This document shows, in pieces, positions 28,609 to 32,262 of a stretch of DNA of 64,000 bases. Source of the DNA: Xylogone sp. PMI_703 (lineage: Eukaryota; Ascomycota; Leotiomycetes). The notes under the pieces are model-generated. The model was given only the letters and a program-made list of their open reading frames with translations, had not been told where the DNA came from and did no database searches. The stretch spans positions 620,001 to 684,000 of the forward strand of contig JAJTUQ010000004.1 of NCBI GenBank assembly GCA_021399445.1, given 5' to 3'. The position numbers were made by a program, and so were the translations under genes. The number at the start of each line of letters is the position of its first letter. Within the stretch, counting starts at the first letter, position 1.

Positions 28609-28732
28609 GCCTCCTTAGCTCAGTGGTAGTAAGTATCTCTTCGCCTCAAGATAAATGCCTATATCTAACCTTGAAAATAGGAGCGCATCACTAGTAATGA
28701 TGAGGTCGCGAGTTCAATTCTCTCAGGAGGCA
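28609..28732 (+). tRNA. tRNA-Thr(AGT) with a 52-nt insertion in the D-loop
   Basis: Acceptor stem GCCTCCT (28609-28615) pairs fully with AGGAGGC (28725-28731), discriminator A at 28732. D stem GCTC pairs with GAGC, but its two strands are separated by an insertion at 28629-28680. Anticodon stem CATCA/TGATG encloses CTAGTAA, with anticodon AGT at 28693-28695. T stem GCGAG/CTCTC has one C-T mismatch; the loop is TTCAATT. The A box (TAGCTCAGTGG) and B box (GTTCAATTC) are intact, and a T10 run at 28739-28748 is a Pol III terminator. Without the insertion the RNA is an ordinary 72-nt cloverleaf. No intron is present at the canonical 37/38 site. Confidence 0.85.
28629..28680 (+). other. GT-AG intron-like insertion inside the tRNA D-loop
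   Basis: 52 nt. It starts GTAAGT (perfect fungal donor), contains CTAAC at 28665-28669 (branch-site consensus, 12 nt from the end) and finishes AAAATAG. Its length is typical of this genome's spliceosomal introns. Exact removal joins GGTA to GAGC and rebuilds the D arm. It contains no TTTT run, so Pol III could read through it. Confidence 0.7.
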
Positions 28733-28738
28733 ACTTCA

Positions 28739-28748
28739 TTTTTTTTTT
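28739..28748 (+). terminator. RNA polymerase III oligo-T terminator
   Basis: Ten consecutive T residues begin seven bases after the tRNA discriminator, as expected of a Pol III unit. Confidence 0.8.
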
Positions 28749-31128: not shown

Positions 31129-32262
31129 CTAAACCAGCACTGGTAAAGGAGCCTCGCCCCTTCTAGCACGCCACTGATTACTCGCAATAATCAAATCCTG
31201 GCAACCCTCTAAAGTCCACCCCCATTTTCTGATGAATCCAGGCGTCACTTCCCAGCTCTCCACGTTACATGGCTCATCCCAAACGATGAGACATCTTCGG
31301 CCTGCGTTAAGGTCGTCAGGATCTTCCCACTCCGGAACTTCCGGAAGTGAGTCAGAAGGATACCTGCTGCCCGATTGTAGTGGATTAGAGTAACTGAGAT
31401 ATAGATCACCCCACAAATCCAAACACATATCTTCAAGGTCGAAGCTAGTGCCTCTTTTTATCATATTGTCCCTAAACCTTGGACAAGGAAACATGCCGAA
31501 AAAGCTTGGGTGAGCACAGTTCATTTGGAGAAGTGTTGGGTATAGTGAAGCCGGGAGAGGTTGGTCAGGAAGAGGATGAATTATCGACAGGCCATCGCAA
31601 ATAGACGTGTACGTCTGCTTGATCGGACTTAATGGATATATGGCCCTTGAAAGAGTGGTTGCGCGAGTTAAGAGGCGCTTGTTGGCTGTTAGGCCTCGAA
31701 GAGCGTTGTATTGGATTAAGTGAATAAGGTGATCTAAAGAGAGTGGGAAATTGAAAGGCTTGTCATGTTTGCAACTGTTGCGTGTTGAAGCCATAGTGGA
31801 TGTATGCCGCGGTCTTGCATTGATGGGATCGAGTCGCTGCCTCAATCTCTTTCTGAATTTATCAACCCAGCCAGCTGAGAACTTGGGCCTCGGCATTCCC
31901 CTTGTATTTTCCAGTTCATCCCAAACCATTCTGGCTTTTCTTCCTATGGCTTCATTCGAGACAGTGAGACCTTGAGCCTCCATCTCCGGGATCCATTTTG
32001 ACAATGCTCTCTCGATTTCTGGCCACTGGCACTTCCGATCCCGAATCTTCAATGCGGTTGCACTTGGTAAGGTCATGGCATCTAGATACTTGAAGCGATC
32101 GCTCAAGCTTCGGCTAACTATGGATTGGCTAATCTCATGACCAAAGTGTATTTTGAACCATGTAATGAGTTCTGCATGAGTTGGCTTGGGCAGAGTGGAG
32201 TGATAATATTGGCGTAGGGCCGCCCGTTGGTAGTTGGGCACAGCTATCCTTGGAGCTGCCAT
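31129..32262 (-). CDS. CENP-B-type HTH protein, transposase-derived DNA-binding protein
   Basis: Intronless 377-aa ORF from the ATG at 32260-32262. The N-terminal ~150 residues contain paired helix-turn-helix units as in Tc5/pogo transposases and CENP-B/Abp1: YQRAALRQYYHSTLPKPTHAEL, then WPEIERALSKWIPEMEAQGL and FSAGWVDKFRKRLRQR. The C-terminal half has no DDE triad, only a fungal-specific region with many Trp and Pro residues. It is therefore either a domesticated DNA-binding protein or a transposase fragment. The frame is open over the whole length, which argues against decay. A motif TATCCTTCTATCGTG recurs at about 32345 and 32370 upstream. Confidence 0.7.
   Translation of the reverse strand: MAAPRIAVPNYQRAALRQYYHSTLPKPTHAELITWFKIHFGHEISQSIVSRSLSDRFKYLDAMTLPSATALKIRDRKCQWPEIERALSKWIPEMEAQGLTVSNEAIGRKARMVWDELENTRGMPRPKFSAGWVDKFRKRLRQRLDPINARPRHTSTMASTRNSCKHDKPFNFPLSLDHLIHLIQYNALRGLTANKRLLTRATTLSRAIYPLSPIKQTYTSICDGLSIIHPLPDQPLPASLYPTLLQMNCAHPSFFGMFPCPRFRDNMIKRGTSFDLEDMCLDLWGDLYLSYSNPLQSGSRYPSDSLPEVPEWEDPDDLNAGRRCLIVWDEPCNVESWEVTPGFIRKWGWTLEGCQDLIIASNQWRARRGEAPLPVLV

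What the first reader, a model, noticed from the sequence alone, without database searches (positions are those of the whole stretch)
28609..28748. tRNA-Thr(AGT) gene interrupted in the D-loop by a spliceosomal-type intron
Seen in sequence: after GGTA the tRNA is split by 52 nt that begin GTAAGT, carry CTAAC 12 nt before the end and finish TAG; removal gives GGTA+GAGC and a complete cloverleaf. Acceptor, anticodon and D stems are perfect, A and B boxes are intact, and a T10 terminator follows. Eukaryotic tRNA introns normally sit at 37/38 and are cut by the tRNA endonuclease; this one is in another place with Pol II splicing signals. If removed, it would be a spliceosomal intron in a Pol III RNA, or a new tRNA-intron type. 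The alternative is a decaying tRNA gene (there is one T-stem mismatch).
Basis: partly seen in the sequence, partly recalled or inferred. Interest (0 to 1): 0.88.

Follow-up and report, generated by a model that had tools for sequence, protein, structure and literature searches.

The report
Transfer RNA genes with spliceosomal introns
In this fungus several transfer RNA genes carry extra stretches that look like the introns of protein genes, so the machinery that normally splices messenger RNA probably also has to splice these transfer RNAs.

Summary
Window 28609-28732 is a tRNA-Thr(AGT) gene split between nt 21 and 22 by a 52-nt GTAAGT...CTAAC...TAG insert. Its genome (50 Mb; inferred to be Xylogone sp. 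PMI_703) holds two uninterrupted copies identical to the predicted spliced 72-mer. It also holds at least eight more tRNA genes with such inserts: three Thr, two Pro-UGG, three Pro-AGG, at 14/15, 19/20, 21/22 and 32/33. All 10 inserts have GTRAGY, CTAAY 10-14 nt before the end, and YAG, like protein-gene introns here. The three Pro-AGG genes, with differently placed inserts, give the identical 72-nt tRNA; no uninterrupted Pro-AGG gene was found. Exons are conserved while introns diverge, so decay is rejected. I conclude that spliceosomal introns invaded functional Pol III tRNA genes; three of these genes also keep a 37/38 intron. Not shown: spliced RNA, or which enzyme cuts. Two U6 genes of the genome carry spliceosomal-type introns too.

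The parts
28609..28732 (+). tRNA-Thr(AGT) gene, interrupted
   Evidence: Rfam RF00005 51.9 bits; spliced form = 72-nt tRNA-Thr(agt)
28609..28628 (+). exon 1 (20 nt; tRNA numbering 1-21)
   Evidence: identical to the first 20 nt of the uninterrupted copies
28616..28626 (+). A box TAGCTCAGTGG (Pol III promoter element), intact
   Evidence: read from sequence; motif name recalled
28629..28680 (+). 52-nt spliceosomal-type intron between nt 21 and 22
28629..28634 (+). 5' splice site GTAAGT
   Evidence: commonest start among inferred protein-gene introns at 3 of 3 settings (second to GTGAGT at the strictest setting)
28665..28669 (+). branch-point-like CTAAC, 11 nt before the intron end
   Evidence: conserved in 4 of 4 Thr introns
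28678..28680 (+). 3' splice site TAG
28681..28732 (+). exon 2 (52 nt)
   Evidence: 100% identical to the uninterrupted copies
28693..28695 (+). anticodon AGT
   Evidence: ARAGORN on spliced form
28710..28720 (+). B box GAGTTCAATTC (Pol III promoter element)
   Evidence: read from sequence; motif name recalled
28739..28748 (+). T10 run, Pol III terminator

Best explanation
These are working RNA polymerase III tRNA genes that gained U2-type spliceosomal introns. The primary transcript (A and B boxes in the exons, U-run terminator) is recognised by U1 at GURAGY and by U2 at CUAAY. The spliceosome removes 52-59 nt and joins the exons; RNase P, tRNase Z and CCA addition then finish the tRNA. Three of the genes also carry a 37/38 intron, which the tRNA endonuclease and ligase would remove. 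Shown: anatomy, number of copies, exact identity of spliced forms, conservation of the exons. Inferred: splicing itself, the spliceosome as agent, and the order of steps.
For: (1) 10 of 10 long inserts in the 9 genes start GTRAGY, end YAG and have CTAAY 10-14 nt before the end; lengths 52-59 nt. Protein-gene introns inferred in the same genome: median 61 nt, branch-to-end median 11 (29 found, 2 in the reversed control). (2) Two uninterrupted Thr(AGT) genes equal the spliced form exactly. (3) Three Pro-AGG genes with inserts at 19/20, at 19/20, and at 14/15 + 32/33 + 37/38 all give the identical 72-nt tRNA-Pro(AGG), so each gene fixes the intron borders of the others. (4) Exon vs intron mismatches: L131/L129 0 of 72 vs 17 of 56 (p=1.6e-7); B/C 1 of 72 vs 13 of 53 (5.1e-5); L092/L128 4 of 72 vs 21 of 56 (7.9e-6); W/A 0 of 72 vs 5 of 52 (0.012); the other four Thr pairings agree (p 6e-5 to 0.015). 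The 4 exon differences of L092/L128 are two compensated pairs, 4:69 and 53:61 (read). (5) The searches made found no uninterrupted Pro-AGG gene and no uninterrupted Thr-CGT gene. (6) Two U6 loci carry 1 and 3 GT-AG introns and are identical over 102 nt when spliced. (7) No strict bulge-helix-bulge in the GT-AG register, 0 of 10. (8) No TTTT inside any of the 9 genes, and a T run of 5-10 that starts within 14 nt after each.
Against: No RNA data. Thr genes B and C have a U4-U69 mismatch in the acceptor stem. Thr-AGT (2), Thr-TGT (2) and Pro-TGG (1) genes without D-arm inserts exist, so for those families the cell could do without the split copies. The lack of TTTT is only weakly better than in protein introns (0/10 vs 14/38, p=0.020; size-matched 5/22, p=0.13). 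The strict bulge-helix-bulge test also fails to mark the three 37/38-type inserts (1, 3, 1 of 4 central pairs), and moving the border by one base gives 3 of 4 and 4 of 4 central pairs in the two Pro-UGG genes, and 2 of 4 with 3 of 3 outer pairs in the four Thr genes, so an endonuclease is not excluded. The intron survey demanded the motifs it reports. Relatives could not be searched.
Confidence: 0.85

Rival explanations
1. The inserts are removed by the tRNA splicing endonuclease and ligase, as in red algae, nucleomorphs or archaea with introns at unusual tRNA positions; the GT-AG look is coincidence or ancestry.
For: Such introns exist in other lineages, including D-loop positions (passages of PMC3978253; PMC4090602). 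Three of these genes carry a 37/38-type insert as well. A one-base border shift gives 3/4 and 4/4 central pairs in the Pro-UGG genes, and 2/4 central with 3/3 outer pairs in the Thr genes.
Against: In the GT-AG register the central helix has 1-2 of 4 pairs in 10 of 10 introns, about the random mean of 1.5. What stays constant across diverged introns is GTRAGY, CTAAY and YAG. Size and branch distance match protein introns.
Confidence: 0.09
2. Decaying or pseudo tRNA genes carrying inserts that are never removed.
For: Copies without D-arm inserts exist for some families. [quoted passage not shown] B and C have an acceptor mismatch.
Against: Exons conserved while introns and upstream flanks diverge; compensated changes in Pro-UGG; identical mature Pro-AGG from three differently split genes and no uninterrupted one found.
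Confidence: 0.04
3. Assembly artefact or contaminant sequence.
For: None found.
Against: Nine genes on three large contigs (C1 9.1 Mb, C12 8.2 Mb, C20 6.9 Mb), three genes on each, with differing intron sequences.
Confidence: 0.01

Closest known systems
mRNA-type introns of U6 snRNA genes in fungi (fission yeast and others)
   Same: Spliceosomal intron inside a Pol III RNA gene; GT-AG introns are present in two U6 loci of this same genome. [quoted passage not shown]
   Different: U6 is itself part of the spliceosome, which is the explanation given for its introns; tRNAs are not. [quoted passage not shown]
Spliceosomal introns of fungal U3 snoRNA genes
   Same: Spliceosomal introns in a small structured RNA; paralogs in one species may differ in having the intron (passages of PMC5832005).
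   Different: Different host RNA class.
Canonical eukaryotic tRNA introns at 37/38
   Same: Interrupt Pol III tRNA genes; many in this genome and an insert there in three of the nine genes.
   Different: Position, mostly shorter length, no GT-AG and branch signals, cut by endonuclease rather than spliceosome.
Ectopic tRNA introns of Cyanidioschyzon merolae, nucleomorphs and archaea
   Same: tRNA introns outside 37/38, including the D loop or D arm (passages).
   Different: Archaeal and C. merolae ones are bulge-helix-bulge introns, the Guillardia nucleomorph ones 3-24 nt; these have spliceosomal signals and sizes.
Spliceosomal introns in rRNA genes of ascomycetes
   Same: Spliceosomal intron in a structural RNA gene (recalled; only a reference title on a messenger RNA intron in nuclear 18S rDNA was seen).
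   Different: rRNA, not tRNA; not a Pol III gene.

Membership tests
U2-type spliceosomal intron | GT...AG borders with a GTRAGY-like 5' splice site | tested here: met
   10 of 10
U2-type spliceosomal intron | Branch-point motif CTRAY at the genome's usual distance from the 3' end | tested here: met
   10 of 10 have CTAAY 10-14 nt before the end; inferred protein introns median 11, IQR 10-16 (29-intron setting, which allowed 4-25)
U2-type spliceosomal intron | Length typical of the genome's introns | tested here: met
   52-59 nt vs median 61, IQR 55-76 (which allowed 40 to about 130)
U2-type spliceosomal intron | Excision by the spliceosome through a lariat | not testable with these tools
   needs RNA
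Functional tRNA gene | Complete cloverleaf with right isotype after intron removal | tested here: met
   9 of 9 spliced forms called Thr or Pro with the expected anticodon by ARAGORN (B and C with one acceptor mismatch); of the 9 genomic forms 8 were called as another isotype and 1 not found
Functional tRNA gene | Selection on the mature sequence | tested here: met
   exon vs intron divergence in 8 of 8 pairings compared, 4 of them separate; three identical Pro-AGG products
Functional tRNA gene | Expression and aminoacylation | not testable with these tools
   needs RNA
Canonical eukaryotic tRNA intron | Position 37/38 | tested here: not met
   the 10 long inserts are at 14/15, 19/20, 21/22 or 32/33
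Bulge-helix-bulge tRNA intron | 4-bp central helix flanked by two 3-nt bulges at the borders | tested here: inconclusive
   1-2 of 4 pairs in the GT-AG register for 10 of 10; but the three 37/38-type inserts score 1, 3, 1, and borders shifted by one base reach 3 and 4 of 4 in Pro-UGG
Group I or II self-splicing intron | Catalytic core | tested here: not met
   52-59 nt is too short (general knowledge); no such Rfam hit in the window

The most novel reading that the evidence does not exclude
In this fungus a whole decoding function (tRNA-Pro-AGG, perhaps also tRNA-Thr-CGU) exists only as genes that need the spliceosome, and one tRNA (L130) needs both splicing machineries: two spliceosomal introns and one endonuclease intron in a single 72-nt product. 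Translation there depends directly on spliceosomal processing of Pol III transcripts, and spliceosomal introns have spread through Pol III genes (tRNA and U6).
Probability: 0.6. Interest if true: 0.96.

Novelty: new variant of a known kind. Interest (0 to 1): 0.92.

Why it matters
Textbooks divide the work: tRNA introns to an endonuclease and ligase, mRNA introns to the spliceosome. Here single tRNA genes appear to use both. It would show that the spliceosome can act productively on tRNA precursors, and that spliceosomal introns can invade very short, tightly folded genes. It gives an unusually clean record of intron gain or loss, because the mature tRNA barely changes and paralogs with and without the intron survive in one genome. 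It also warns that tRNA finders miss such genes: at its gathering score Rfam's tRNA model reports 2 of the 9 (window and A). B and C were not reported at that threshold, and at E up to 5 L131 gave one partial match of 21 bits while L129, L130, L128 and L092 gave none.

Tried and rejected
Decay: rejected by exon conservation and by the T-stem mismatch being present in uninterrupted copies. Transposon footprint: no target-site duplication beyond the one shared border base was seen (read). Group I/II: no Rfam support. Search of prokaryote genome contigs and of viral contigs with the Thr D-loop pattern: 0 matches each, as expected for a fungus; plasmids, 0. Own-genome pattern for D-loop 5' splice sites with two bases between R15 and GG: 1 hit (7 in the backward control), not a tRNA. 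With one base: 6 hits (11 in the control), all 6 of them tRNA genes on reading. The looser GTAAGT pattern: 39 hits against 53 in the control, 5 already known; of the other 34 fetched, 1 (L095) has a B-box match downstream and is a tRNA. I ran Rfam on 17 of those 34 (no tRNA among them); L095 itself was scanned as L131. The tRNA inventory is incomplete: one search scored 63 of 1824 candidates, so 9 interrupted genes is a lower bound. T-run depletion in the introns was tried as a Pol III test and is weak. Folding the unspliced RNA gave nothing (z -0.84). Two covariance models were built; one was used only on sequence already held, where it ranked the four Thr genes first. Literature: searches listed no title or abstract start that reports a spliceosomal intron in a tRNA gene; only listed rows were seen (15 of 86, 15 of 24 and 15 of 27 papers), the library holds only openly licensed papers, and the U6 paper of Canzler 2016 is not held (known to me from the reference list).

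Full report
What is in the window. Positions 28609-28732 (+) hold a tRNA-Thr(AGT) gene whose D arm is split after nt 21 by 52 nt (28629-28680) that begin GTAAGT, carry CTAAC and end TAG; a T10 run follows at 28739-28748. Rfam's tRNA family is the only gathering-level match in the 64-kb window (51.9 bits), with an insertion of 53 nt placed in the D arm. ARAGORN with the bacterial code and no intron option finds no tRNA in the window, but calls the spliced 72-mer tRNA-Thr(agt).

Where it is. The window is C20:620001-684000 of a 50.1-Mb genome in 25 contigs. A window protein, aldehyde dehydrogenase, has its best match (of the best 120 listed) in a record of Xylogone sp. PMI_703 whose longest contig is 6,927,901 bases, the length of C20. 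Its residues 1-419 align at 92.29% over 454 columns, which is what 419 identities and 35 gap columns (an unremoved intron) would give. So the organism is very probably that leotiomycete (genus lineage); PMC11708051 calls it a mycoparasite (passage).

Copies of the same tRNA. A search of the genome with the spliced 72-mer gives two uninterrupted genes, C12:4193681-4193752 and 4193850-4193921, 100% identical to it, and three further interrupted genes on C12: A (AGT, exons identical to the window), B (anticodon CGT) and C (anticodon TGT). Their introns are 52, 55 and 56 nt, all with GTAAGT at the start, TCTAAC near the end and TAG; the middles differ. The spacer between the two uninterrupted genes resembles the spacer between A and B: 67 of 78 aligned bases equal, reached by 0 of 500 shuffles. 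So a tandem pair exists in a form with and a form without introns. I could not tell whether this is precise loss or gain.

Other tRNA families. A pattern for a D arm running straight into GTRNGT gave six hits: the four Thr genes and two tRNA-Pro(TGG) genes. These are L092 (C20:1064791, intron 56 nt, GTAAGT...CCTAAC...CAG) and L087/L128 (C1:2787812, 59 nt, GTGAGT...TCTAAC...CAG), both at 21/22 and both also holding a 14- or 13-nt insert at 37/38. A looser GTAAGT pattern gave 39 hits, no more than its backward control (53). Of the 34 not already known, one is a tRNA: L095/L131, tRNA-Pro(AGG), with a 56-nt intron at 19/20. A DNA search with the spliced Pro-AGG form gave 3 candidates, all three interrupted: L131; L129, at 19/20 with GTAAGC...GCTAAC...CAG (57 nt); and L130, which has 55 nt at 14/15 (GTGAGT...ACTAAC...CAG), 58 nt at 32/33 (GTAAGT...CCTAAT...CAG) and 19 nt at 37/38. 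In all: 9 genes, 10 spliceosomal-type introns, 4 positions.

Why they must be removed. The three Pro-AGG genes, split at different places by unlike sequences, all give the same 72-nt tRNA. Where one gene is split another is continuous, so the borders are fixed by comparison to within one base, and a GT-AG register exists for 10 of 10 introns. Exon and intron mismatches: L131/L129 0 of 72 vs 17 of 56; B/C 1 of 72 vs 13 of 53; L092/L128 4 of 72 vs 21 of 56; W/A 0 of 72 vs 5 of 52 (Fisher p 1.6e-7, 5.1e-5, 7.9e-6, 0.012). The four remaining Thr pairings agree (W/C 8.6e-4 and A/B 6e-5; W/B 6.8e-4 and A/C 0.015). The one B/C exon difference is the first anticodon base; the four L092/L128 differences are two compensated pairs (4:69 and 53:61). 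Against: B and C share a U4-U69 mismatch.

Need for the genes. Genes without a D-arm insert exist for Thr-AGT (2), Thr-TGT (2, L004 and L009, of another sequence family) and Pro-TGG (1, L127, which has a 10-nt 37/38 intron). For Thr-CGT the patterns found only gene B; the other CGT hits, L041 and L082-L085, are not tRNAs by ARAGORN and Rfam. For Pro-AGG only the three split genes were found. ACG (39), CCT (69) and CCC (29) codons are in use in nine long window ORFs, which are mechanical ORFs, not all proven genes. The inventory is incomplete (one search scored 63 of 1824 candidates), and other tRNAs could read these codons by wobble, so need is likely, not proven. That the single CGU gene of baker's yeast is essential is recalled, not checked.

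Which machine. Introns of protein genes were inferred by joining open frames in 47 held segments of this genome (205,088 nt; same selection rule). At the strictest of the three settings, 29 introns were found against 2 in the reversed control: median 61 nt, branch-to-end median 11, GTAAGT and GTGAGT the commonest starts, CTAAC the commonest branch. The looser settings gave 38 against 9 and 50 against 33; the still stricter one gave 23 against 0. The search demanded GTRNGY, CTRAY 4-25 nt before the end, YAG and 40 to about 130 nt, so these features are partly built in. The tRNA introns fall inside. The 37/38 introns of other tRNAs here show none of these signals by eye. A strict bulge-helix-bulge is absent in the GT-AG register (1-2 of 4 central pairs in 10 of 10, random mean 1.5), but the test also fails on the three 37/38-type inserts, and shifting the border by one base gives 3 and 4 of 4 pairs in the Pro-UGG genes and 2 of 4 with 3 of 3 outer pairs in the Thr genes, so it is not conclusive. 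U6 supplies a same-genome precedent: of the four U6 matches, L078 (over Rfam's cut-off) has one and L079 (41.2 bits, below the cut-off) three GT-AG introns of 51-54 nt with a CTRAY 9-14 nt before the end (one 5' site is the weak GTTCGC), and both give the same 102-nt run, terminator included, when spliced.

Pol III features. A and B boxes lie in exons, no TTTT occurs inside any of the 9 genes, and a T run of 5-10 starts within 14 nt after each. None of the 10 introns has TTTT against 14 of 38 protein introns (p=0.020), or 5 of 22 of like size (p=0.13); with the four U6 introns 0 of 14 (p=0.0055 and 0.070). This is weak support only, and that 38-intron set has 9 in its control.

What is known. 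[quoted passage not shown] PMC3978253 (passages) describes D-loop introns in C. merolae with bulge-helix-bulge motifs. PMC8450103 (passages) says eukaryotic tRNA genes are limited to one intron; three genes here would have two or three. PMC5832005 (passages) calls U3 and U6 the only small structured RNAs known to be often interrupted. Ten searches listed no report of spliceosomal introns in tRNA genes; three of them listed only 15 of 86, 24 and 27 papers, and the library covers only openly licensed ones.

Judgement. The machinery is known and spliceosomal introns in a Pol III RNA are known from U6; the substrate class, functional tRNA genes, is new as far as I could search. I therefore file it as a new variant of a known kind, with high interest, and hold about 0.85 for spliceosomal removal and higher for removal by some means.

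Noticed in passing
L078 (C20:2705914), L079 (C21:3523655): U6 snRNA loci with one and three GT-AG introns; the first intron has the same position in both; spliced forms are identical over 102 nt.
   Followed up: yes
L080 (C12:1734791): Degenerate U6-like sequence lacking the ACAGAGA part, probably a pseudogene.
   Followed up: no
L130 (C20:4000593): A tRNA-Pro(AGG) gene with three inserts of two kinds (14/15, 32/33 and 37/38).
   Followed up: yes
L038 3682-3922 and L039 5626-5955: Two tandem tRNA-Thr pairs with related spacers, one pair without and one with introns: a natural pair for studying intron gain or loss.
   Followed up: partly
L073, L075 and others: Long 37/38-type tRNA introns (ARAGORN: up to 51 nt) in several isotypes of this genome, without GT-AG and branch signals by eye.
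   Followed up: partly
window 31129-32262 (-): ORF combining a centromere-protein-type HTH (ABP1), a Tc5 transposase DNA-binding domain and DUF3425: an unusual domain mix, perhaps a domesticated transposase DNA-binding part.
   Followed up: no
window, L039, L131, L129, L130, L128, L092: At its gathering score Rfam's tRNA model reports only 2 of the 9 interrupted tRNA genes, so standard annotation may undercount such genes.
   Followed up: yes
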